A stretch of 64,000 nucleotides of DNA from the NCBI GenBank assembly GCA_023159155.1, contig JAJNNX010000003.1, positions 558,001-622,000 of the forward strand, given 5' to 3'. Below, in pieces: positions 6,690-55,413 of the stretch. The notes under the pieces were generated by a model. It saw only the letters and a program-made list of their open reading frames with translations, had not been told where the DNA came from and made no database searches. Made by a program: the position numbers and the translations under genes. The stretch's first letter is position 1. The number at the start of each line of letters is the position of its first letter. Origin of the DNA: Ustulina deusta. Lineage: Eukaryota; Ascomycota; Sordariomycetes; Xylariales; Xylariaceae.

Positions 6690-7258
6690 CGTGTTGCTGA
6701 GCTCTGGTTTCTTCCACGGTAGCCGCTCCCCAGCTCAGCTACAACGTTCTTGGTGTAAGTCTATCAAGTAAACTAGGCCTCTCCTCGCTAACCCAGGGCT
6801 GATGAGGTCGTACCTCCTTTTCAGGACCTCATCGAGTACGAAGTGAGTGCCGAGCACGGAATAGATCCTTGCCATTACAGCGTATATTCTGGTCCTCCCT
6901 CAGAACAGGAGGAGGCTTGGGGTCGCTTGGTCACATGTGCATCATTCAGAAAACACTAGATTCGGATATTAGGCGATGAGGAACTAAATGCCCTGCAGCT
7001 GTCTATTTCAACATTAGCCGTGATGAGTTGACAAGGACCGGAGAGGCGTTCGAAGATATCATCGAGCTCACAGGAGGCGGTTATCCTGCCAGCGCCATAG
7101 AAGTCTAGACCACCAACACGGCAGTTTTACGGCCATACGACAAGGATTCAAAGCCATGGACAGTATTTCAAAGAATGAAAGAAAGGCAATGAGTGTTACA
7201 AGCAATGCCCTAATGTAAGCGATTTTTCTCGATTTCGTCAAACTAGAATAGTGCACGA
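6690..7258 (+). pseudogene. Degenerate UstYa/DUF3328-like gene (relic)
   Basis: Fragments in the plus direction resemble the UstYa oxidase family. After a plausible acceptor at about 6829, a stretch reads LIEYEV and then YSGPPSEQEEAWGRL, the family's GPPSxExxxAW region. Further on come FNISRDELTRTG and ELTGGGYPASAIEV, which correspond to the region just before the family's first HxxHC motif. At that point the frame hits a stop (7107-7109), and the bases beyond spell only a damaged remnant of the metal-binding motif, lacking the Leu and Cys codons. The downstream HC..R..MC motif was not found. It converges on the flavin monooxygenase gene. I read it as a broken third copy; an unusual intron arrangement cannot be ruled out. 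Confidence 0.5.
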
Positions 7259-7292
7259 TGAGCAAGCTGAGATACAGAAGTGGTGGGGGGTT

Positions 7293-8813
7293 TTACGCCG
7301 AGAAATGCAGATCACTTGTATAGTCTCCCCATCGAGCGTGAACGTAATCGATGGGTGGACGATTCCTAGGTTTCCAGTTCCCTGCCATTCCATACACCGG
7401 CAGATTGTCGTCAGCTGCGAGTGCATACGATGAACTTAGTTGCCACATACGTTGTGTACCAGTTGCTGCTTCAGGAGAAACTCGAGCCACAGCCGACTTC
7501 TTGCCACTTTTCTCCATGTGTTTCAAAAGCCTAGTAAGAACGATCGCTGTGTCGTCGACGCCGAGAGTCCAGGCGTGGTTTGTGTATCCGAGCATGAACA
7601 TCATGTTTGGGACGGAATCCAACATGGCTCCGTTCCAGATGAACCGCTTTCTCCACGAGATTGGCGACCCATCAGCCTTCAAATCAATCTTTCCGCCCAT
7701 TGCCATGCGGAGGCCTGTTGCGGTGACAATAATGTCAGCAGCGATCACCTCACCGCTTTTCATGCGGATTGCATCCTCAGTCACTGTTTCAATTTTCCCA
7801 GTAACGATTTCAACATTTGGTAGGTGCAGCGCTTTGTAGAATGCAGCGTCCGAGTCCAGGCAGATGCGTTGCTCCCAAGGATTATACCGTGGTTTGAAAT
7901 GAGTATCAAAGTCAACATTCTTCGGTAGTTGCGCCACGATGTTTTCCCGAAGCCCAGCTCTGACAACATCGGGTAGGTAGTGGCACAGGAGTACAAACAG
8001 GTAGAGTAAAACGATGGAACAAATACGTCGGCAGAGGTTGACGAGTGATTTCGGAAGAAAACTTGGAGCCCATCTGGTGTTCGGGGTGGCCACTATATAG
8101 GTTGGGCTTCGCTGAATCATGGTAACTTGAGTGGCTCTATCGGGCAGTGCGGGTAAGAGACTGACAGCGGTGGCGCCGCTCCCTATGATGGCGATCTTCT
8201 TTTTGGTGTAATCAAGGCCCTTTGGCCAGAATTGCGGATTCACCACCTCACCTGTAAAAGATATTAGAGTAGTCGGTCCCCAATATTTGAACAGCGATCA
8301 AACCAGCATGCCTTTGAAAGAGTCTAAGCCGGTAATAATAGGTTGAAGTGGGGATTCATAATCATAGTAGCCAGTGCCGAAGACAACCCAGCGAGAGTTG
8401 ATCCTCTTGGTTTCTTTATCGCCATGGGCAACTGACAAAGTCCAAGATCGGTCTGCCGAAGACCAGTTCGCAGACAAGACTTGGTGGCGAAAGCGGATGA
8501 ATTGGTCCAGATGGTACTTTGACACAGCATCCGTAAGATACTCCATGATTTGGTCTCCTGTGGCGATGGGGTAGTCGAAAGGCCAAGGTTGCCACGAAAA
8601 TCCCAAAGTGTCCATCTCGGAATCGGATCGCACTCCAGGGTATCGATATAGATCCCAGGTCCCGCCAATGTTCTCGCGAGCCTCGAGGATCGCAAAATTG
8701 AGGTGAGGTAGCTCTGTCAGTAACCGGTATGCACAGTTGATGCCGGATATTCCTGCTCCGACGATGATAACATCAAAGGCTTCAACATCGGAAGACGAGA
8801 ATAGAGGTGCCAT
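7293..8813 (-). CDS. FAD/NAD(P)-dependent monooxygenase (Baeyer-Villiger/FMO type)
   Basis: Flavoprotein that would insert one oxygen atom into a small-molecule or peptide substrate using NADPH and O2. About 486 aa. The FAD-binding GxGxxG (VIIVGAGISGINCAYRLL) is at the N-terminus. GGTWDLYRYPGVRSD, typical of Baeyer-Villiger enzymes, follows, and the NADPH-binding IAIIGSGATAVSLLP is in exon 2. The single intron is ambiguous. A GC-AG model (exons 7293-8251 and 8312-8813) gives FKGEVVNPQFWP, which fits the fingerprint FxGxxxHxxxW exactly except that His is Asn. A GT-AG model (7293-8246, 8304-8813) shifts the spacing by one. An internal hydrophobic stretch (LYLFVLLCHYL) may be a membrane anchor. 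Ustiloxin clusters contain flavin monooxygenases of this broad class (UstF1/F2), so a role in the RiPP locus is plausible but inferred. Confidence 0.87.
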
Positions 8814-9225
8814 CTTAGATGCACGCTGACGCTAGTATAAATTCGAGGGATTCCGTTCTGTGGCGTTTCTGTGCTGGCGTTAGTGGCACAAGAAAGAAGA
8901 CTAAAAGCCTGACAGTGAGATTGGAGACTGATCAGATTCAACCACCTACCCAGGCATGCGATGTATTGGTTGCATCTAGGGTATGATACGTCTCGGGTAT
9001 GATACAGTATCATTCCTGTGCGCCACAGAGCCACACTTACAAGCCACAAAAGCCACAAAAACCACAGTCCGAACAGTCGTAAGACGCAGGGACCGAAGCC
9101 CCTAAGACATCCGATTAAGTAGGTACCTAGGTAAGTAGGTAAGTACCTAGGAGCGTCAAGTCTTCCCCTCTCGCCAATTCTACCCCATTGGGAGCGCCAT
9201 TGCCCCTCTCCTGACAATTGCTCAA

Positions 9226-11304
9226 TCACTGGATTTCAAACTCTTCCTCCAGCGACAGTGATCCATTCGCAGAACAGCGATGAACTGCTTGCCCTTCCAT
9301 TACCCCGTCAACGTAGGCCTCGCCAACCAATTCCCAGCAGACCCTCGGAGCCATCCGCATATGACTCCGCGGATGCGCTCTGAGTACTACCGGAACGCTG
9401 CAGCCAAATAAGATGCAGATCTTGTCTCCCACTTGAGTTTGCCGTGGTGCCAGGCCCATAAACTTTTCGTCCGGACCGGGCCGTCCCGGTGAGCGAAATA
9501 CCCTGCGGTTCCATATAACAGACTGTACTCTCTTCAGGAAGTCCTCAATATATTTTGGCTGATTTGAGCTCAGAAGATCCTCGGTGTCGAGGCTGGTCAG
9601 ACAGGTGTTCCGAGGTAAGAGTTGAAGTAAGGATAGACGATACAGAGACGGTGCTCGACTCCCAAGAGTATCCCTATTTGCGCATAAAATACGCCAGAGC
9701 GAGTCAGAGATATCGCATATAGTCCCATTGTCGTCTTTGGTGATGCCGCCGATCATTTCCAGGCATTCTTTTAGTACGATTCCGTCCGCCATGCGTGTCG
9801 ACAGATGCTGAACTTCGCCCAGAACAATCCCTTTTGCAAAAAGAGAACCAGTGTAGGTTTTTCTGGCATCGTCAACGCCGAATCGAACCTCGGCAATCGT
9901 TCCACCATTGGCGTTGTAGATCCCCTGTGAAGGCCCTCCAACGAGGGAATCTGCGTTGACTCGGTTCTTGCAATTAAGTTTTGGTTCACCGAAAGGCATG
10001 CATCCCAGGACAGCGATCCAAGAAGGGACGGCAAATCGGAGATCCGGATCCACCAGATCGCATTGCCAAGGCTGTCTCTTCACATCCGCCCAGGGCCGCA
10101 CAATGACATCCAATGACCCTGAAGTCCGGGCACAGTACAGAACGAAATCCGTGAAGACCTCAAGATTGGAGCGGTTGTAGTCGGGCTCCCACGAGGGAAG
10201 CCCGCTGATCTGGTTTCGTACCGAGTGAGAAAGGTCAGCGGAGGAGAGCAAAGAATAAATGTGATCCCTCGGATCTGTAGTCTGGAACTGCCTGAAATTG
10301 TGCACCAGAGTTTCCAGATTTGTTCTCGAGCAAATGATGTTGCCGTCATTTGACTTCAAGAAAAGGTCCTTGAGTGTGTCCAGGAGCTTGATTGACCTCG
10401 AGTTTTCCAAGTCATCGAGAAGCCCCTCGTAGGCAGGGTAATACGGTGACCGTTGGAACGATACGCGGATATCAGCCAATCTGGACCGAACGATATCAAC
10501 CGAGTCAGCGAGATCAGAAAAATGGCATTCTCTTCCCCCGCAAACGATGATAGCTTCCTTCGCAAAAGCCACTTCCTGGATCACCCACTTCCGCGAGAAC
10601 CACGTCCTGTTCAGCAACCCAGCTAGCGCGAGTACCCCAAAATCATCAAGCCATTTGTCTTGTGAAAGGAACTCCCAATCCTGAATTTGTGATATGAAAT
10701 TCATCGCATGGTTGCTAGTAACGTCTTCCTCGCCAAGGTAAACCAAGGTTCGTTCAGCGGCCCTATAAATGCTGGCTATCTTTGCTACTTGCACACTCTT
10801 CTCCGGCGTGGAATTTTGGTTGATGCAAATTGCATCAACCCACACATACAACCCTTGAACTTCATTTCTGATCTGGCGAAGTAAGCTGTGCAAGTTTGGT
10901 TGAACATAAAACTCGGCATTACCAACCAGGATCGAGGATGTCTTGGGAGCGACCCCCCAAACATAACTCAATGCTTCGAATGTGGGATTGTCGCTCTGCT
11001 TGACTGTTTCCAAACTACAATGTATGCGGTCACTCCAGATACCAGGCTGGATGTAAAGAAGGCGAATGCTGTCTGCATCGATGGGCGAATACAGGTATTC
11101 GTTTCGGGGCAGGGCGATGTCACTCAGTTCCGGTTGTGAGGTTGACTTAGATGCGGGTTGGACGCGATACGGCATTCCCGTCGAACGTCTCGCTCTCTCC
11201 GGAGGCTTGTATGCCCTCCTTTTTGACGGAGGATCTTCGTTCGTATTGGCACCCTCATCCACAGTGTCGGGTTCCCGCCGCTTCAGTCCGCGATTGTTCT
11301 CCAT
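9226..11304 (-). CDS. HET-domain (heterokaryon incompatibility) protein
   Basis: HET domains act in fungal non-self recognition and programmed cell death. Single exon, 692 aa from the ATG at 11304; the frame is open further upstream, but this Met precedes a normal polar N-terminus. Residues 1-60 are charged, with a possible nuclear signal (PPSKRRAYKPPERARR). The HET domain shows FEALSYVWG (about 109-117), YVWVDAICINQNS (about 154-166) and RTWFSRKWVIQEVAFA. The C-terminal ~400 residues follow the usual layout of long fungal HET proteins (FRQFQTTDPRDHIYSLL; GEAYVDGVMEG near the end). It lies between the monooxygenase and UstYa-A. Whether it belongs to the RiPP locus or is an unrelated neighbour is open; HET genes are common in variable regions. 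Confidence 0.92.
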   Translation of the reverse strand: MENNRGLKRREPDTVDEGANTNEDPPSKRRAYKPPERARRSTGMPYRVQPASKSTSQPELSDIALPRNEYLYSPIDADSIRLLYIQPGIWSDRIHCSLETVKQSDNPTFEALSYVWGVAPKTSSILVGNAEFYVQPNLHSLLRQIRNEVQGLYVWVDAICINQNSTPEKSVQVAKIASIYRAAERTLVYLGEEDVTSNHAMNFISQIQDWEFLSQDKWLDDFGVLALAGLLNRTWFSRKWVIQEVAFAKEAIIVCGGRECHFSDLADSVDIVRSRLADIRVSFQRSPYYPAYEGLLDDLENSRSIKLLDTLKDLFLKSNDGNIICSRTNLETLVHNFRQFQTTDPRDHIYSLLSSADLSHSVRNQISGLPSWEPDYNRSNLEVFTDFVLYCARTSGSLDVIVRPWADVKRQPWQCDLVDPDLRFAVPSWIAVLGCMPFGEPKLNCKNRVNADSLVGGPSQGIYNANGGTIAEVRFGVDDARKTYTGSLFAKGIVLGEVQHLSTRMADGIVLKECLEMIGGITKDDNGTICDISDSLWRILCANRDTLGSRAPSLYRLSLLQLLPRNTCLTSLDTEDLLSSNQPKYIEDFLKRVQSVIWNRRVFRSPGRPGPDEKFMGLAPRQTQVGDKICILFGCSVPVVLRAHPRSHMRMAPRVCWELVGEAYVDGVMEGQAVHRCSANGSLSLEEEFEIQ

Positions 11305-12511
11305 CTTTTCGGTATGAGGACCGGTCTTCGTAGCACAGCGCACGCGAGGGATGGTGATTTCGATTAGAACAAGACAGCAAGATGATGAGGACAGCCGGTC
11401 TTGGGACGCGATACAGATATTTGTCGTGCAGCAGGGAGGCTGGTTTGAAAGCGGAAACAAGTGAACTCTTGGTAGTCGGAGCAGCAGGACCGGGGTCACC
11501 AATAACTCGGCGACTAGTTGTGACACGGAGGTGCAACCAGTATTAAATTGTACTACTTATTGAAAGCAATTTAACAATGTCGCAAATATAATATTTAGAC
11601 AAGAATTCACAGAATAACTGGGGGGGGGGATTGTATAGAAAGGAGTTGTTTCCAGCCTCGATTCTAGAGTTGAAGGGCCTGCGAAGACATAAATGCCGCC
11701 GTTGATGAGATGGTGTACAGCACATGTGCCCGCCAAGTGGCCGGCGGCCTCTTCCACACTGCCTGACTGCCTCACCGCCACACTGCGCCACAACTAGAGA
11801 AAGTGAAAACTTGAACGGGTTCTATAGTCTCTAGTATGAGGAGTAGATGTTGTATTGATAATAGTCTTGAAGTTTACTAGTTTAGTCTGAACTATCTACC
11901 TATCTACTCCTGGTTATATGATCGGCCTACACACAGCAAAACCCCTTTCCAAAAGGGACTAACAAGTTTAGGAAAACAATGTAAGCAATTATTGCAATAA
12001 AGAAAGGATTGGCGGAGTTCATTCTTATTATAAACTACTAAGTTGTGTGTGAAAAGTAGTTAACTATTTAAAAGATCTAAATTTATAGAGGGAAAATAAG
12101 GCAATAACTGCATAACTATTGCTAGTTGTATTATTGGTGTTGAGTGGGCGGCTGGTGGGGGGCCGCTACTCGTTGTGCCTCCCCTAGGCATAGTTTTCTA
12201 TTATTTTAGTCCAGTTCTGTTCTATTGGTCTACTTCACTACGCCAATATATTTCTGCTCGTTCCAAGGCTCAATTTTTTTACCGCGCTAAATATCTGAAG
12301 TTAGGTATTTAATCATTGCCAATATGTACTACTACTGTGTTCTCCTATGATTACATGTCCTAAAATCAACTTCAGATTCATACCGAACCTCTTCCCGCCA
12401 CCGAAATTTCGCGCAAAATAAGTTCTTAGGTTCGAGTTCACAGGCATTCGTGGCCGACCACGGTTGGTGGGCTTTCAATTGCGGCCAAACCTTCTAAATT
12501 CCGCTTTCCCC
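11305..12511. other. Intergenic, AT-rich, no gene seen
   Basis: It contains the promoter side of the HET gene (to ~11.5 kb, still open in frame), then AT-rich DNA (11.8-12.3 kb) with no motif-bearing ORF. The right end would hold the 3' untranslated region of UstYa-A. Confidence 0.5.
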
Positions 12512-13559
12512 CTAACTCTGTCTCGGGTGGGCATTGGCGTCTCTTGCCAGAGTCCACTCGTGTATCTTCTCAAAGTCACGACAAGTGTGCACAACCTCAG
12601 TGTCTTGTAGTATCCGGTCACGCTTCGTAGACCATTGGACTGGGATCATCGTCAGGTCGGCGGCACACATGACGCCTTGTCGGAGATAGTCGACGCAGTG
12701 TTCTGCAGATTTCAATCAGCGCTTTCCGGTGATTCTTTTGGAAACGGGCCTGACTACTCACCTACGTGCATGGTATGCACAGGCTCAGGATTGGGAGGAG
12801 TATAGTAGTCTGGACGAAGAGCTTTGCGAATGACATCCTTTTATTAGGTTAGTACATCGATATTGAGGAAGCGGGGGGGTTCGAGCACTTACTAGACAAT
12901 GAAGCTGGTGGAATGAGTCTGGTCCAGTCAGGTACCAGCCCCCGGGTTTCTGATACGTTATATCGGCGACGCTCTCTGCTTCCTGGCCCCTCAAGTCAAC
13001 GGCTTGGCCTGGGAACATTGTCAGTCGGTTTACAGATATGCACTATAAGATGCGTCCTCTCACCTCTGATCAGTGATCTCCAGCGTCGGTCCATTTCATC
13101 GCTCGGTTCGCCTACGTATTGCGGGACGCCCGGCTGGATGGCCCGGTAGGTCGTACCGTTCTCATGAAACTTTAGACCACCCGTGAATTTGACCTTTTTA
13201 AGATATATTGAGGAGCGTAGAGGTTCTGTGTAGGTTACGGATGTTAGTTCGATTACCTCTGCGAGACGTAAGAGCTCTTGTCACTCACCGAGATCAGTGT
13301 CGAAGCCAGTTTCGTAGCTGTATCTACGGGGCGACGGTCTGATCGCCGTTGTGAACCATGATGTGAAGGCCAAAGATAAGAGCCATAGAATAACGATGAA
13401 TCCGTACTTTGTACGACGCCTTCGTCTTTCAAAATCACTTAGTTGCCATCTCCCATTGGTACTGCCTGGCGTTATAGTGGTAGTCGACGCGATCTCTGGA
13501 TCCTTTTCGGCTCCTGAGTATTGAGACGCCACGTCTATGCTCTCCTTTCTAGAACCCAT
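12512..13559 (-). CDS. UstYa/DUF3328-family oxidase (UstYa-A), five exons
   Basis: UstYa-family proteins are copper-type oxidases that cyclise or modify ribosomal peptides in the ustiloxin, phomopsin, asperipin and related pathways. My model is complement(join(12512..12702,12762..12837,12893..13008,13064..13258,13289..13559)), 282 aa, with all phases closing. The N-terminus is short and polar, followed by RRRRR and one membrane segment (YGFIVILWLLSLAFTSWF, about residues 51-68), as expected for a type II membrane protein of the secretory pathway. The luminal part has FTGGLKFHENGTTY, YVGEPSDEMDRRWRSL, the first metal motif FHQLHCL, and the second motif EHCVDYLRQGVMC followed by a variant of the usual TPITW, here LTMIPVQW. 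Both HxxHC/HC motifs are intact. The precursor lies 2.2 kb upstream of its start, on the same strand. Confidence 0.92.
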
Positions 13560-14049
13560 CGTGAGGCTCAATAGTAGACCAATATGCTACTCTTCGCTTG
13601 GTAGAAAGATCTTCAGCTCGTCTGCAGGACAGGAACTGGGAAAACGAAAGACTTGTGAAACTTTACATCAAGAAACCGAGCGACCCTTCTTCTCAGGAGG
13701 GCCGCGTGAGCTCCACGCGGACAGTGCGCGAGATGCCTTTGAATCAAAAGATACATCAGCCAGCTCTATCACCACCCATGAAACTTGAGATAGAATGAAT
13801 CTCGCAGCATCGTATAAGTTTACACCTTCCTAAAACTGCCAGGCGACTACGAAGAGCTGGAGCGATGCCTCCGTGATCGGTGGGATGGTACAGCGGAATC
13901 TCAGCGCCAACATGTGTTAGTTGCCCACTTTTGCTATCCGCAACTAGTTTAAGATGCTGACGTGCGACATGTCTTGGTCTAGGCGCTCGATGAAAATCCG
14001 GGGTAGACACAAGACGGCCATCTTGCATCAGAGATGTATGGGTCAACCT

Positions 14050-14130
14050 ATTCCAGCCAACACGCTAGTTAGCTTAAAGTTAGGACTTTAGATACGAAGC
14101 AACGCCACGAGATTACGCTTGCCGAAGGAC
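14050..14130. repeat. Diverged direct repeat, left copy, with imperfect palindrome
   Basis: TTCCAGCC..ACACGCTAGTTAG, then TAAAGTTAGGACTTTA (14075-14090), then AACGCCACGAG and GCTTGCCGAAG. It matches 14281-14368 in block order, about 230 bp away. Confidence 0.6.
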
Positions 14131-14280
14131 CAATAGAAACCCTAATTTCACAGGGGTAATGCCATCGTCAACAATATTATTTGGGAAATCAACCCAAATC
14201 GTGTCTTCATTAGAAATACAACTTCGTTTCTGGCCCACTTATAGTAACCATCAATCCCCTTGCATGACCTTATTAAGCCT

Positions 14281-14368
14281 ATTCTAGCTGATACGCTGCT
14301 CGCTTAAAGTTCGAACTTTACTATGTAGATAGAAAAAACAACGCCACTAGCTTTCGCTCACCGAAGCG
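14281..14368. repeat. Diverged direct repeat, right copy, with perfect 16-bp palindrome
   Basis: TTCTAGCTGATACGCTGCTCG, then the perfect palindrome TAAAGTTCGAACTTTA at 14305-14320, then AACGCCACTAG and GCTCACCGAAG. The palindrome is kept in both copies while the flanks diverged. It may be a transcription-factor site or part of a small transposon relic. Confidence 0.6.
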
Positions 14369-15802
14369 CCTGGCTTGGCATTGCATTCTCGCCTGCGCCT
14401 AGCCATAACGTAAGCACCACTTGTGTGCACAACCTAACGGCTCCATCCCGCAACTTTAACGGCATGTGTCACAAGACAACCCGAAATGGAACCCATTAGC
14501 TCCGATCGTAACGGATCTAGCCGAGAATAAATCCTTTTGGCTCGTTAAAAATGCAACGAGGTTACTCAAGGCATCTGGAGAGAATGATGTTGAATCGGTG
14601 ATTAATTGCCTACATTGCGAATGAATCATGGAACTATCATTTCAAGTCACTTGACCATATTACACGGAATGCAGGAGTATTCCAGAACTTCGGCGCCTAT
14701 CGTGCGTCTCTAAGATAGAGGTCGCGGCCACAAGTATCACACAATTATGGATCTACCGTAGTTCTATGTAGGATGTGCTTGAGCTAGGTGCAATGTTGCT
14801 TGGTGTAAGACGCGAATAGTAGGCAACTAGCCCTGGCCACAATTGGCTCTCGGCAGGGGTCCCCTGCAAATCGCAATAGCTGAGATAACCGCGCACCATA
14901 TTTCCGTGTAAGTCGTCATACTCACGCAATCGTATGCTGTTATTATCGCATGCAGAGTCTATTGATGCAGAAACTAGATAGTAAAGTTGTAGGATTGCTG
15001 AGGTGTACTACTCTACATATCAGAGTTAGGAAACGAAATTAGGTTAGGTAATGGGTTGTTGAGGCCCCTTGTGTTGTCACGTCGTCTGTCTGGTGATTGC
15101 TCTAAATTAGATCATAGTAATATTAGCCAATGCCGCTCTGTTATCGACACATAGCCACAAATGAAGAAAAAAAGGAAGAAAAATTCCCAGTAGCCACAGA
15201 ATTCAAAACTTTGCCATCGAAATTCTGTTATCTGTTAGTCTCAAACAAATATGTTCTAGAGTGAAAGTTGAAAGCCAAAAGGAGCAAACAGGATCACACT
15301 ATGTTGTTTCTATGGGAATAACAACGGCTTTACTAAGGACTTAAAGGATATACCTGATTTCGCAATAATCTTCTATGGCACTAAAGGTCCGTTACCGTTC
15401 CAAGATCTGTGGAGATCAGGCAGGAATATTAAGGCTATCTCATCGATACACCATGTTACCTAACAAATTCTAAGCCGGAGCCCGCCCGTCCTTCTCCCTC
15501 TGTATGTCTAATTCTAAGCGAGAGCCGGATAGCCAGGTCCGAGGCTTAGTGCGTATGACAGCACTAACAAAGAGTTGTCACGAGTCATATAGGATTACGT
15601 AAAAGGATGTTAAGCGTGACAAGTGTTCATATGATTGAGCTATCCTGCGGACGAAGAGAAGTGAGGTAGCTATCCATCGATCATATTTCCATGTTCATCC
15701 CAAAACCCCGTGAACCTATCCTCCTTTCCCAAACCCAATATCACAACCGATCCACCACAGCCGACCGAGATAGATATAGAAAGCAGCAGTGGACAATCTT
15801 AT

Positions 15803-16600
15803 CTAGTAGAGGATGTTGATAAACGCATCCACAGACTCGTCTGAGGTGCGCTTGTAAACTGTGTTCTGAACAGCATCAACCTCCGCCGAACCCCTCTTGT
15901 AGACGGTGTTCTGAACAGCATCGACTTCTACCGGATCCCTCTTGTAGACAGTGTTCTGAACAGCATCGACTTCTACCGGGTCCCGCTTGTAAACGGTGTT
16001 CTGGACAGCATCGACCTCGGCCTCACCAGCGCGCTTCTCCTTGTATAGGAGGTTGATGAAGGTATCCACATCCTTATCTGAGGAACGCTTGTAGACGGTG
16101 TTCTGGACGGCATCGACCTCGGCCTCGCTAGCACGCTTCTCCTTGTATAGAAGGTTGATGAAGGCGTCCACGTCCTCGTCCGTGGCACGTTTGTAGACGG
16201 TGTTCTGGACAGCGTCGACCTCGGCCTCGCTAGCGCGCTTCTCTTTGTACAGAAGGTTAATGAAGGCATCCACATCCTCGTCTGTGGCGCGCTTGTAGAC
16301 AGTGTTCTGAACAGCATCAACCTCCGCACCGCCAGCACGCTTCTTGTATAGAAGGTTGATGAATGTGTCCACATCCTTGTCTGAGGCACGCTTGTAGACG
16401 GTGTTCTGAATAGCATCGACCTCACCGGTCCCTCGCTTGTAAACGGTGTTCTGAACAGCATCGACCTCACTGGCCTCTCGCTTATAAACGGTGTTTTGGA
16501 TCGCGTCAACCTGTTCGACGGCCCGCTTGTTGTTGGGAGTTGGTGCGGCAGAAGCCAAAGCGGCCATGATGGCGACTACGGTGGTGACTTGGAAATGCAT
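15803..16600 (-). CDS. Kex2-processed repeat precursor peptide (candidate dikaritin-type RiPP precursor)
   Basis: Single exon, 265 aa. Residues 1-19 form a signal peptide; NNKR at 23-26 is the first Kex2 site. Residues 27-265 are 15 tandem units of 14-18 residues, all but the last ending in KR. Ten units (1,2,3,5,7,9,11-14) carry core type A, VDA[VI]QNTVY. Five (4,6,8,10,15) carry type B, VD[AT]FIN[LI]LY. All 15 fit VD[AT]xxNx[VL]Y. Type A is followed by KR; type B by KKR or KEKR; the final unit stops right after its Tyr. Units 4-11 alternate B and A strictly. Signal peptide, KR-separated repeats and an invariant Tyr are hallmarks of fungal KEP/dikaritin precursors such as UstA, and two UstYa-type oxidases flank it. 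Product structure is unknown. An alpha-pheromone precursor is the main alternative, but the UstYa neighbours and Tyr-ended cores argue against it. Confidence 0.9.
   Translation of the reverse strand: MHFQVTTVVAIMAALASAAPTPNNKRAVEQVDAIQNTVYKREASEVDAVQNTVYKRGTGEVDAIQNTVYKRASDKDVDTFINLLYKKRAGGAEVDAVQNTVYKRATDEDVDAFINLLYKEKRASEAEVDAVQNTVYKRATDEDVDAFINLLYKEKRASEAEVDAVQNTVYKRSSDKDVDTFINLLYKEKRAGEAEVDAVQNTVYKRDPVEVDAVQNTVYKRDPVEVDAVQNTVYKRGSAEVDAVQNTVYKRTSDESVDAFINILY
15806..16522 (-). repeat. 15-unit coding tandem repeat of the precursor
   Basis: Units of 42-54 bp encode residues 27-265. Units 6 and 8 encode the same 18-residue peptide yet differ at seven positions, all silent; units 12 and 13 are nearly identical at DNA level. 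The array therefore shows both recent copying and older copies held constant at protein level. Confidence 0.9.
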
Positions 16601-17498
16601 GATGTAAGATATCTGGTTGAGATTGTGATTGTGATGATGGTGGCTGGTGGATGGAGGATGGAGGGTGCGGGCTGGTGTGTCTCTGAAGGACTATCAACTC
16701 TGGGGATGCAGGAGATCTCGTCGACTTTATACCACACCGGGAGGAATAATATCTCGCAGGAGGCTCGACTCCTCGCTTGCAGCGCTACAAGGTCTTTCTC
16801 CTCAAGTTCGCCATTTCCTATTGCTGGCGGTCCTCTAGCCGGTCTACCAGGTACTTCCCGCAGAAGCGTGCACACTCATCATCTCCGACTTGAGACGACG
16901 GATTCTCCGCGATTTGTCTTCTCTCCCGATCTCGCTTCCCGTCATCAAGACCTTCCTTCCCGTGCTTAGTCGCGTGATTGCGATATCTACACCTTGGTGC
17001 TCGCCAAGCTAGACAACACTTGCCTGGTTGGCCGGGATAGTTGGCTGCTGACATACAGAACGGCATGTAGCCCCGCCGGCATGCAGCGTTGCTACCGTTC
17101 AAGGCGATTACAATGGTGTTTTCCCCACGAAAGCCTAGATGTCAAACCGCGTGTCGTGATGGGGCGTCTATTTGACGCCGTTGATGGTGATAGTCTTACT
17201 AATAAATGTAACTTACCAATAATAACGCATGCAGCATGCCAGCTCAGCTGCGACCCTTGCTGCATGCTCTCTAGACCCAGACGCTCGGAAAGACTCCACG
17301 CTGCCATAATCGGCCCCAGGCCGTACAACTCAAACTGTGCACATCGGGTCCATGAATATGGATGATTCCAATTGTTACCGATAGCTCTATCTCAATATCA
17401 CTGGTCCTCTCCCATGCGCGTTTTATTGACTTTCACTTCCCGCAGCCATCGAGATTCTCTTTCACGCCCTCACTAATTCTCGTGTGCCTCTTCTCACT
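16601..17498. promoter_or_regulatory. Divergent promoter region: precursor (left) and UstYa-B (right)
   Basis: About 900 bp separate the two divergent start codons, so one shared regulatory region could drive both. On the minus strand TATAAAG lies at 16725-16731, about 125 bp before the precursor ATG, giving a plausible leader of ~95 nt. ORFs in this interval show no motif and I do not call a gene. Confidence 0.55.
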
Positions 17499-18707
17499 AT
17501 GGCTTCATCCAAGGAGTCAAATTACAGTCTCGTCAGAGACAGCGAGTCCAAAGACTCTGACTCTGACTCCGAATCTATCGGACTTCTGCGGGAAGCGATG
17601 TCCCAGCGTAGCCGACGGCGCGCTCTTTGGCCTTGGATTGCCCATATAGTTATATTTACCACATCCCTTACCCTATTCGTTACGGGCACTATTCGTTATA
17701 ATAAGTCTATAAAATCCGAGGCATCGGTAGAGCCTGGATGGACTCAGGAATATGGTATGAAATCGTGTCTATCTTACCTTGCCCGTCACTAACACCGCAA
17801 TAGGCCCCGCAGTCCGCGCCGTTGGCCAACGACATGGTTGGCAACTACTAGGAGCCTTCGATCAGCCCTCACCTTGGCGAGGAGAGCCAAACCCAGAGCT
17901 TGATGAAGCATGGGAGAAGATTACACATGGTAAGTTGGGCCATCTTCGTGTAGTATTCGATATTAACGCCGAGATGTCAGCCGGAGTGTTCTCCGTTACA
18001 GCAGAAGAAATTGAGCGGGTAGGCAAGATGGACAATAGCACAGTGCTGCTCCCAGAAGAGTCCGGCGGTGGTTACATGGCATCTCTAGAAGCCACGCATC
18101 AGTTACATTGCCTGGTAGGCCAATCACATCTACGTATCACTCACCACGACAGCCACATTCTAATCCGGTGTGGCGCGTAGGATATGCTGCGAAAGTTTTC
18201 TTTCCGGGACTACTACGCGGACAAAGCAGCTCCATTTTCTGATGCCCACAAGTTACGAACACATATGGGTAAGTAAGCCCACATCCAACTGAAGTGATAT
18301 TGGCTGATGCATTCCGTAGACCACTGCACCGAGATGCTACGACAAGTCATCATGTGTAATGCCGACTTGCGTAAGTAATTTCCAGAGTCTTTATAGCCCT
18401 TCTTCCCCGGTCCAATTGTTTCTTTTTCTGTCGCGCTATTACTTCATACCTTCTGGCTTTCGATTCAGATTATATTTCCTGACATGCTTGTTTTGTAGAC
18501 ATCATTACGTATAATTGGGTCGGTCACGTCGACTACCCTTGGCCCAACTTCAGCATCAACAGGCAGTGCCGAAGCTGGGATAACATGATGGATTGGATTA
18601 TGGAGCGCACCGCACATACAAAGGAGAAGAATGGGTTGATTCGCCGACCACCCGGTGCTGCCATCATGGACGTCAACCCCGTCGAGTATGTGCATATAGA
18701 CTTTTGA
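17499..18707 (+). CDS. UstYa/DUF3328-family oxidase (UstYa-B), six exons
   Basis: Second intact UstYa-family oxidase, predicted to act on the peptide released from the neighbouring precursor. My model is join(17499..17754,17804..17929,17981..18114,18181..18268,18320..18370,18499..18707), 287 aa, with all phases closing and introns mostly of 49-66 bp. The N-terminus is acidic (KDSDSDSES), with one membrane segment at about residues 42-64 (LWPWIAHIVIFTTSLTLFVT). The luminal part has WRGEPNPELDEAWEKI, GGVF-like AGVFSVTAEEIERVG, GGGYMASLEATHQLHCLDML with the first HxxHC, and DHCTEMLRQVIMCNADL with the second motif. It ends with a longer tail than UstYa-A. The N-terminal luminal part differs strongly from UstYa-A, so the two are old paralogues rather than a recent duplication. 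Confidence 0.92.
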
Positions 18708-53207: not shown

Positions 53208-55413
53208 CTACTTCTTTTCTTCGACCACGACTTCCTCTTCCGAATTGTTCTTTACTACTACGTCCAAAATATCTATAAAGGGGTGTGACAACTCCTCGGT
53301 TGTCTCATCGTCGCTGTCATACTCGTCGTCAATGAAGACACGCTCAACAGAGATGTATATGTCTGTGACACCGACGATGCTGATACGCCATTCATCTCGA
53401 GGTACAGCCATGTCGTGTGTATAATGTAGGTCTTGCCACCGATCGAAGCAGTAAGATACCGCTGCTTCACTTGTTCGAAAAGTAAGTGGGTTGAACTGTT
53501 CTTTGGTGGCCGGTGCTCCCGAATCGCCCTGTTTGTTCAATATGGTGAGGGGAGCTTTTGGAGGATCGCCTTCCTGTGAAACCACAATAGGGTGCACCCC
53601 AAATCTCAACCTCCCACACTCTCTTCCCTGATCAGGGTCTTCATGTGAATGATCTAGATCATCGAGACGTACGACGGCGATCATGAACAGGCGCTTCGCA
53701 TCAGGGCCATATTCGTAACATAAAAGCGTGCCACTGGCTGAGCTGTGCGGGCTGATTACACCATCAACGTAGGATATACTGACATCATTTAGTGTCCGGC
53801 TTGACCATTGGTAGGCCGTGGAATGTCTCCTTATGATTAAATTCGTAGTTCGCGGAGAAGGCGCGGGGTGCGGTGAAATGGTAAATTTCCGCATCTGAGC
53901 CGCCAATTGTGCACCCGAATACTCATTGTGAACAAATCTGTCGCCAACAACTATCTCGTTTGTCCGGGAAGTGTGGCCATTGCTATCGGCGATCGGGATG
54001 GATACGTAGTGGAATTTTTTGTTCGAATCGTCCCATTGCCCGCATAGAATTACAATATGGCGGATATAAATCATTCGGACTAAGATGCAGGACTTATTAA
54101 CCATTGCGCAGCTGGGAGAATGGCGGATCCTGATGTCTGGGGCATTCGGATTTGAAGAACCAGTTAGAGACCTCGAGACTACTTACCGATTGGTGGATAC
54201 TGAACACTGCAAGAGATGAAGAGTTAGAAAACACCGTTTATCGGGAAAAAATTGATGTATACATAGGGTCTTTCAGGAGCATGCATGCGAATACGACACA
54301 TAGGAGCATAATTTTCCGGGGAACAAATGATTCAGAAATACTAACTGAAAAGCAACATGGGGTCCGATATCGAACTGCGGTAATTCCACATGGGCGGTGC
54401 GGCCGATCACACTGGAAACTGAGGGCATCTTTGATCCGACGTAGAAATATTTGGCCGCCGTCGGTGCAATTACGAACCGGCCAGAGTGCTCAAAGTCGTT
54501 AGGGCCATCGGCGAGCAGGCCCAAAAATTCCTCGACTACTCTGTCAGGTTCATGTTTGATATGTGTCGTCCCCCATATGTGCTCATAGTCGTATACCGCA
54601 GTCGAGGGTTGCCTGACGACTTTCCCCCAAGCGAATAGGGAGTGGTCCTGGGGGTATTCACGGATAAGAGTCTCTTGAAGTCGGCGGAAAGCCTTCGGGC
54701 CCTCGCCATATATGAGTGGCATATTGACGTTGAAAATACCAAGTAGGCAGTAGGCCATATCCTCTTCTCGCGATGTCGTTCGCTTTGCCGCCCACGACAT
54801 CCGCTGCGCAATGCTAGCATTATCAAGGCTTCTTCCGGTTAAAAAAGGTTCATTAATACGAGTAATAGCTGCGAGATGACCCGAGAGCTGGGAGCGCGTT
54901 CCAAGGGCCTCCCAGCGACTCGAGTAGAAAACTATCTCGCGAGGGGCGATCAGCTCCTGTAGCGTCCACCCCCGGGTTACCCAGCGGCTCTTGGCGAAGT
55001 CGAGCTCGGAGCTTTCCGAAATGTCGGAGAGATATGCATAACAGACGGCGGCATTTTTATACCACTGAAACATTGAATTAATGGCTTCCGATAGTTCAGC
55101 GCTGCTTCTTTTGTCGATACAGCAGCTTGACGGCAATGGATTAGCGGCTCACTGGTCTAGTTTTCGCTTCATTCTCGGGTGCTCACGTATCAATCCAAAC
55201 CCATTCGAAGCCGTCGGCAGCTGCCTGTTGGCAGCAAAACTTGATCTTAGTAAAGCCGTCTTTCCCCCCAACATCCCTCATAGGTTCGTATTGCCATTCT
55301 CGAAACGATACTTCCTCGTCGCCCCAGGTATGCGACAGAATGGCGTAAGGTGGCGCTTGCTTATTTGAGATGAACTCTTTCATCTCCCAGGTGCAAGAGT
55401 TGAGCAGCCACAT
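53208..55413 (-). CDS. HET-domain protein with NLR-type N-terminus and unknown C-terminal part
   Basis: HET domains trigger incompatibility cell death in fungi. Model: complement(join(53208..54129,54187..54206,54342..55125,55187..55413)), 650 aa, phases closing. The N-terminus MWLLNSCTWEMKEFI, APPYAILSHTWGDEEVSF, FEWVWIDTCCIDK (across intron 1), WYKNAAVCYAYLSDI, WVTRGWTLQELIAPREIVFY and REEDMAYCLLGIFNVNMPLI is the classic form found in HET proteins of the NWD/HET-E class. Instead of a NACHT and WD repeats, the rest is ~400 residues without a family I recognise, ending in an acidic tail (DDEYDSDDETTEE; EEEVVVEEKK). The small 20-nt third exon is the weakest part of the model. Confidence 0.9.

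What the first reader, a model, noticed from the sequence alone, without database searches (positions are those of the whole stretch)
6690..18707. Candidate new dikaritin/ustiloxin-like RiPP locus with a minimal gene set
A KR-repeat precursor sits between two intact UstYa-type oxidases, with a flavin monooxygenase and a broken third UstYa-like gene nearby. Seen: all these genes and their motifs. Known: ustiloxin, phomopsin and asperipin pathways combine such precursors with UstYa oxidases, and flavin monooxygenases occur in ustiloxin clusters. Inferred: they make one modified peptide family here. The peptidase, tyrosinase and methyltransferase of the ustiloxin cluster are absent, so the product should differ.
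Basis: partly seen in the sequence, partly recalled or inferred. Interest (0 to 1): 0.92.

Follow-up and report, generated by a model that had tools for sequence, protein, structure and literature searches.

The report
Fungal crosslinked-peptide gene cluster (dikaritin type)
A fungal gene encoding many copies of two short tyrosine-ending peptides sits between two genes for enzymes of a peptide-crosslinking family; it looks like a genuine but ordinary-type member of a widespread class of fungal peptide gene clusters, and the same genome holds at least eight more loci of this kind with unrelated peptides.

Summary
An intact 265-aa secreted-type precursor (16600..15806, -) carries 15 units between Kex2-type sites, ten ending NTVY and five INLLY/INILY. 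It lies between two complete UstYa (PF11807/DUF3328) genes, A (13559..12511, -; 143.5 bits) and B (17499..18707, +; 188.3 bits), each with two HxxHC motifs. Among units the core codons vary mostly synonymously (NTVY class: pN 0.026, pS 0.479). In the same 56-Mb genome PF11807 gives 26 loci; of the 19 I could read, 9 (window included) hold a tandem dibasic-repeat precursor, each within 3 kb of a UstYa domain. So precursor plus UstYa recurs, and this is a dikaritin-type locus whose core I found in no held paper. Not supported: the flavin monooxygenase is Baeyer-Villiger-like, separated by a HET gene, and FMO-like hits are near 1 of the 9 loci; the 'third UstYa' is a weakly supported relic. Lack of tyrosinase and S41 peptidase is the rule (0 of 9 by search), so no sign of special chemistry. 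Most likely: Kex2 release, then UstYa-catalysed tyrosine crosslinking of two related peptides; chemistry and role unproven. New member of a known kind.

The parts
15803..16600 (-). Precursor (KEP) gene: signal-peptide-like N-terminus and 15 Kex2-delimited units, 10 ending NTVY and 5 ending INLLY/INILY; stop codon 15805..15803
   Evidence: Frame, units and codon analysis; repeats; no other match in the genome
12511..13559 (-). UstYa-A oxidase, 5 exons (13559-13289, 13225-13064, 13008-12893, 12837-12762, 12702-12511), motifs HQLHC and HVEHC
   Evidence: Splice model; PF11807 143.5 bits
17499..18707 (+). UstYa-B oxidase, 6 exons (17499-17754, 17804-17929, 17981-18114, 18181-18268, 18320-18370, 18499-18707), hydrophobic N-terminal segment, motifs HQLHC and HMDHC
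   Evidence: Splice model; PF11807 188.3 bits
16601..17498 (.). Intergenic region between the divergent precursor and UstYa-B genes, possible shared promoter
   Evidence: Gene orientation; no regulatory test made
6819..7105 (+). Two pieces resembling UstYa, no HxxHC motif: probable relic, not a working part
   Evidence: Frames; no Pfam match; shuffle test, one piece of two supported
7293..8813 (-). Baeyer-Villiger-type flavin monooxygenase, neighbour; membership in the cluster not supported
   Evidence: First exon matches PF00743 and NAD_binding_8; second exon's best solved relatives are cyclohexanone/Baeyer-Villiger/steroid/phenylacetone monooxygenases; near 1 of 9 precursor loci
9226..11304 (-). 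HET-domain gene separating the flavin monooxygenase from UstYa-A
   Evidence: PF06985 102.1 bits

Best explanation
A three-gene dikaritin-type RiPP locus. The precursor enters the secretory pathway (inferred from its N-terminus), is cut at KR by a Kex2-type protease (inferred from the sites), and yields two related peptide classes sharing V-D-[A/T]-x-x-N-x-x-Y: a VDAVQNTVY class (ten units) and a VDAFINLLY class (five units). UstYa-A and UstYa-B, probably membrane-anchored (hydrophobic segment seen by eye), then crosslink or otherwise oxidise the peptide, most likely through the side chain of the C-terminal Tyr to an internal Val, Ile, Leu or Phe (inferred from ustiloxin, asperipin, epichloecyclin and victorin). 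Shown: the genes, the repeat structure, amino-acid constraint on the core, two HxxHC motifs in each oxidase, and recurrence of precursor-next-to-UstYa in the genome. Inferred: processing, crosslink, co-expression, export. Biological role unknown.
For: Uninterrupted genes and PF11807 matches. Ten NTVY units: 45 pairs, 135 synonymous against 24 non-synonymous differences, pS 0.479, pN 0.026; five INLLY units: 10 pairs, 27 against 17, pS 0.435, pN 0.082. Within the genome 9 of 19 readable UstYa loci (26 in all) hold a tandem dibasic-repeat precursor; gap from repeat frame to nearest UstYa domain 622-2084 bp. Across fungi 1758 of 7878 such precursors have DUF3328 genes among the 15 nearest genes, at 3.09 genes on average, and 65.6% of repeats in those contain Tyr against 38.2% in the rest (PMC7329392, section 7).
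Against: No expression, mass-spectrometry or cross-species data could be obtained; the protein database was switched off. 10 of the 19 UstYa loci read gave no precursor by my scan, and UstYa proteins also act outside RiPP pathways, in cyclochlorotine, atpenin and astin clusters (PMC12048977 section 22), so neighbours alone do not prove the chemistry. UstYa-A lies 2.2 kb from the precursor's stop.
Confidence: 0.78

Rival explanations
1. The precursor makes linear, unmodified secreted peptides (pheromone-like, hormone-like or repellent-like) and the UstYa genes beside it serve something else.
For: Alpha-pheromones and repellents have the same signal-peptide-plus-Kex2-repeat build (PMC6339444 passages); 6120 of 7878 KEPs lack a UstYa neighbour (PMC7329392).
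Against: Two complete UstYa genes flank it, and UstYa lies within 3 kb of all 9 precursors found here, though only regions around UstYa were scanned. KEPs annotated as mating factors or pheromones lack DUF3328 neighbours with three exceptions (PMC7329392 abstract).
Confidence: 0.13
2. A larger dikaritin cluster from the relic UstYa to UstYa-B, including the flavin monooxygenase as a tailoring enzyme.
For: Flavin monooxygenase and a UstYa relic lie within 12 kb; a flavoprotein monooxygenase figures in the published ustiloxin B scheme (PMC6514808 figure legend). One other UstYa locus, C80, has an FMO-like hit about 10 kb away, but no precursor was found there.
Against: A HET gene intervenes; the enzyme is closest to Baeyer-Villiger monooxygenases; FMO-like hits are near 1 of 9 precursor loci, the window itself.
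Confidence: 0.1
3. A decaying cluster: the relic shows that the locus is losing genes and may no longer make a product.
For: UstYa-like relic at 6819-7105; uncertain splicing of the monooxygenase.
Against: Precursor and both UstYa genes are uninterrupted and the repeats show strong amino-acid constraint.
Confidence: 0.08

Closest known systems
KEP + DUF3328 loci surveyed in fungi (Umemura 2020, PMC7329392; abstract and sections 6 part 1, 7, 13 seen)
   Same: Signal peptide, at least 3 tandem repeats of 8 or more aa between Kex2 sites, UstYa genes next door, Tyr in the core
   Different: A full-text search for NTVYKR, QNTVY, FINLLY, VDAVQNTVY and NTVYKRD listed five papers, none on fungal peptides by title and abstract; the survey's supplementary table of KEPs was not read, so a homologue may be listed there
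Asperipin-2a cluster (PMC6514808 passages)
   Same: Small cluster with a UstYa homologue; core ending in Tyr
   Different: Core FYYTGY and one UstYa homologue with a transporter and a reductase; here two UstYa and unrelated cores
Ustiloxin and phomopsin clusters
   Same: Kex2-repeat precursor with two (ustiloxin) or five (phomopsin) UstYa-family proteins (PMC7329392)
   Different: No EDYXI core (sequence; motif from PMC6339444), no tyrosinase or S41 peptidase hit on the contig
Victorin and epichloecyclins (PMC9233826 passages)
   Same: Multicore Kex2 precursor; C-terminal aromatic crosslinked to an internal Leu (victorin); several related peptides from one imperfect-repeat precursor (epichloecyclins)
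   Different: Different core sequences (victorin and epichloecyclin cores recalled); chlorination and methylation genes not looked for here
The other eight precursor loci of this genome (C34, C59, C75, C45, C65, C42, C47:1.018M, C1:2.157M)
   Same: Tandem dibasic repeats within 3 kb of UstYa
   Different: Unrelated cores, e.g. APWPLYVAKDA, VDVPNYSNSYLD, KDNDDIWLW

Membership tests
Dikaritin-type (KEP + UstYa/DUF3328) | At least 3 tandem repeats of 8 or more aa between Kex2 sites | tested here: met
   15 units; definition PMC7329392 section 13
Dikaritin-type (KEP + UstYa/DUF3328) | N-terminal signal peptide on the precursor | tested here: inconclusive
   Hydrophobic N-terminus seen by eye; no SignalP available
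Dikaritin-type (KEP + UstYa/DUF3328) | UstYa gene(s) beside the precursor | tested here: met
   Two, 143.5 and 188.3 bits against cut-off 25
Dikaritin-type (KEP + UstYa/DUF3328) | HxxHC motif in the oxidases (PMC12048977 abstract) | tested here: met
   HQLHC and HVEHC in A, HQLHC and HMDHC in B (sequences)
Dikaritin-type (KEP + UstYa/DUF3328) | Side-chain crosslinked product | not testable with these tools
   Needs mass spectrometry
Ustiloxin/phomopsin proper | EDYXI core | tested here: not met
   Absent from the precursor; motif from PMC6339444
Ustiloxin/phomopsin proper | Tyrosinase in the cluster | tested here: not met
   23 PF00264 hits in the genome, none on contig C47
Ustiloxin/phomopsin proper | S41 peptidase in the cluster | tested here: not met
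   5 PF03572 hits, none on C47; all weak (best E 1.2e-6), so a split or distant member could be missed
Ustiloxin/phomopsin proper | Methyltransferase in the cluster | not tested
   Only 20 frames or pieces of the window were scanned with Pfam; no methyltransferase among their matches
Asperipin-2a | FYYTGY core | tested here: not met
   Absent from the precursor
Asperipin-2a | Transporter and reductase genes | not tested
   No dedicated search
Linear pheromone/repellent KEP | No UstYa neighbour | tested here: not met
   Two UstYa neighbours

The most novel reading that the evidence does not exclude
One precursor feeds two oxidases with two interleaved substrates: the NTVY and FINLLY cores (same frame VDAxxNxxY, different interiors, different spacers KR and KKR/KEKR) are each handled by one of UstYa-A and UstYa-B, giving two differently crosslinked peptides in a fixed two-to-one ratio that act together.
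Probability: 0.12. Interest if true: 0.6.

Novelty: new member of a known kind. Interest (0 to 1): 0.32.

Why it matters
It adds an apparently undescribed core-peptide family to the fungal UstYa RiPPs and shows that one genome can hold at least nine such loci with unrelated cores and no tyrosinase or S41 peptidase hit on the contig of any of them. Such a set would let one compare which UstYa acts on which core. By itself the locus is not surprising: nine dikaritin clusters in one genome has a precedent (PMC9632046 passages).

Tried and rejected
Homologues in public protein sets: the database is switched off, so conservation in other species is untested. Paralogues of the precursor: none besides itself at E up to 1. 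PDB relatives of UstYa-B: none at E up to 1. Structure prediction of a UstYa paralogue alignment: failed, then switched off. Relatives of the 13.65-15.70 kb gap: two short pieces elsewhere, 71 and 74% identical; of the relic region: none. Spurious Pfam and NCBIfam matches to the repeats were ignored. Precursor scan: the first, stricter scan found 4 loci besides the window; the looser one added C65 among the same loci and C42 in a locus fetched meanwhile; one search added two in four further loci. Rows dropped before counting: three other-frame readings of repeats already counted (two in L023, one in the window). Rejected: flavin monooxygenase as a shown cluster member; 'missing tyrosinase and peptidase' as a sign of special chemistry.
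Full report
WHAT IS THERE. The window is part of a 56.06-Mb genome in 123 contigs, G000:C47:558001-622000. The precursor gene is a single open frame of 265 codons, 16600..15806 on the minus strand, followed by TAG. After a hydrophobic N-terminus ending in KR come 15 units: 1-3 NTVY, 4 INLLY, 5 NTVY, 6 INLLY, 7 NTVY, 8 INLLY, 9 NTVY, 10 INLLY, 11-14 NTVY, 15 INILY. Ten units read VDA[V/I]QNTVY and five VD[A/T]FIN[L/I]LY, so both follow V-D-[A/T]-x-x-N-x-x-Y. NTVY units end directly in KR; INLLY units have KKR (one) or KEKR (three), except the last, which ends the protein.

SELECTION. Within the nine core codons the ten NTVY units differ by 135 synonymous and 24 non-synonymous changes summed over 45 pairs (pS 0.479, pN 0.026), the five INLLY units by 27 and 17 over 10 pairs (pS 0.435, pN 0.082). 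Pairs are not independent, but the contrast shows that the amino acids, not just the DNA repeat, are kept.

OXIDASES. UstYa-A (13559..12511, minus, five exons) and UstYa-B (17499..18707, plus, six exons) translate without interruption and match PF11807 over nearly its whole length with 143.5 and 188.3 bits against a cut-off of 25. Each has two HxxHC motifs (HQLHC, HVEHC; HQLHC, HMDHC). In an alignment of 12 paralogue pieces from this genome the H, H and C of the first motif are invariant and the two H of the second nearly so. UstYa-B and the precursor are divergent with 0.9 kb between them.

NEIGHBOURS. Beyond UstYa-A lies a HET-domain gene (11304..9226; 102.1 bits), then the flavin monooxygenase (8813..7293). 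Its second exon's best solved relatives are cyclohexanone, Baeyer-Villiger, steroid and phenylacetone monooxygenases. The in-frame GT-AG introns found for it start at a weak donor; a GC donor is possible by eye. The UstYa relic at 6819-7105 is supported by one of its two pieces only (0 of 300 shuffles against 37 of 300), has no HxxHC motif, no Pfam match and was not listed by the genome search.

RECURRENCE IN THE GENOME. PF11807 gives 45 hits (exon by exon, a lower bound) that group into 26 loci when joined within 10 kb. In these 19, a scan for frames with at least three copies of a tetrapeptide spaced 7-70 residues apart with dibasic sites between found precursors at 9: the window, C34, C59, C75, C45, C65, C42, C47 near 1.018 Mb and C1 near 2.157 Mb. 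The other 10 gave none by this criterion, which would miss spliced or few-copy precursors. For six of the eight others I looked for a Met-plus-hydrophobic start upstream and saw one in 6 of 6, in the same frame at C75 and C65, elsewhere in another frame or piece that would need splicing (no null made); the last two were not examined. The nearest UstYa domain is 622 to 2084 bp from the repeat frame in all nine. Of the scanned 322.8 kb, 46% lies within 3 kb of a UstYa domain, so 9 of 9 has probability 0.0009 under random placement. Only regions around UstYa were scanned, so precursors elsewhere in the genome are not counted. The precursor of the window has no paralogue by sequence. At C42 too the precursor lies between two UstYa hits.

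ACCESSORY GENES. Tyrosinase: 23 hits, none on a contig bearing one of the 9 precursors; S41 peptidase: 5 weak hits, likewise none. FMO-like: 24 hits; only the window's own lies near a precursor locus. C1 and C59 have hits hundreds of kilobases from theirs; C80 has one about 10 kb from a UstYa locus without a detected precursor. So precursor plus one or two UstYa genes is the usual set here as far as these three families go. Methyltransferases and transporters were not searched for.

COMPARISON. Umemura found 7878 KEPs in 1345 of 1461 strains, 1758 with DUF3328 genes among the 15 nearest, on average 1.7 such genes and 3.09 genes away (PMC7329392 abstract and section 7). Venturia inaequalis has nine dikaritin clusters (PMC9632046 passages). 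Asperipin-2a comes from a four-gene cluster with one UstYa homologue (PMC6514808 passages). Victorin is cyclised between a C-terminal Phe and an internal Leu, epichloecyclins between Ile and Tyr (PMC9233826 passages): the basis for proposing a C-terminal Tyr crosslink here. Ustiloxins and phomopsins share EDYXI (PMC6339444 passages), absent here. A full-text search for NTVYKR, QNTVY, FINLLY, VDAVQNTVY and NTVYKRD found five papers, none on fungal peptides by title and abstract; supplementary tables and deposited annotation were not searched.

VERDICT. A real locus, above chance, of a well-described kind; the core peptides seem new; the interleaved two-core precursor with two oxidases is its one feature worth a targeted test. 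Product and role remain unproven. On re-checking I lowered the main confidence from 0.80 to 0.78 and raised the linear-peptide rival from 0.12 to 0.13, because 10 of 19 UstYa loci showed no precursor and only UstYa regions were scanned.

Noticed in passing
G000:C13:72540-79038 (L033): A UstYa locus with two tyrosinase hits (C13:74403-74465 and 74945-75145) between its UstYa hits, the only UstYa locus with a tyrosinase hit inside it; no tandem dibasic-repeat precursor found in 70000-79900 by the scan.
   Followed up: partly
G000:C66:158133-163866 (L024, L025): Four UstYa hits within 6 kb, probably three genes, and no precursor found by the scan; possibly a non-RiPP use of UstYa.
   Followed up: no
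L034 2009-2521 and L035 1202-1723: Precursors with unusual cores: KDNDDIWLW (Trp, no Tyr; KK as well as KR sites) and a unit of about 35 residues containing DIPIAAIVSLIGGNTKAGAYDEDVAAADPAEVLG.
   Followed up: no
window 15318-15485: Short stretch between UstYa-A and the precursor with copies on C58 (74%) and C46 (71%), perhaps an old dispersed repeat.
   Followed up: no
window 54276-55148 (-): Second, weak HET-domain match (21.0 bits, below cut-off 22.5).
   Followed up: no
window 8240-8320 (-): Exon junction of the flavin monooxygenase: weak GT donor or a GC donor, and Asn where Baeyer-Villiger enzymes usually have a fingerprint His (motif recalled, from no call).
   Followed up: partly
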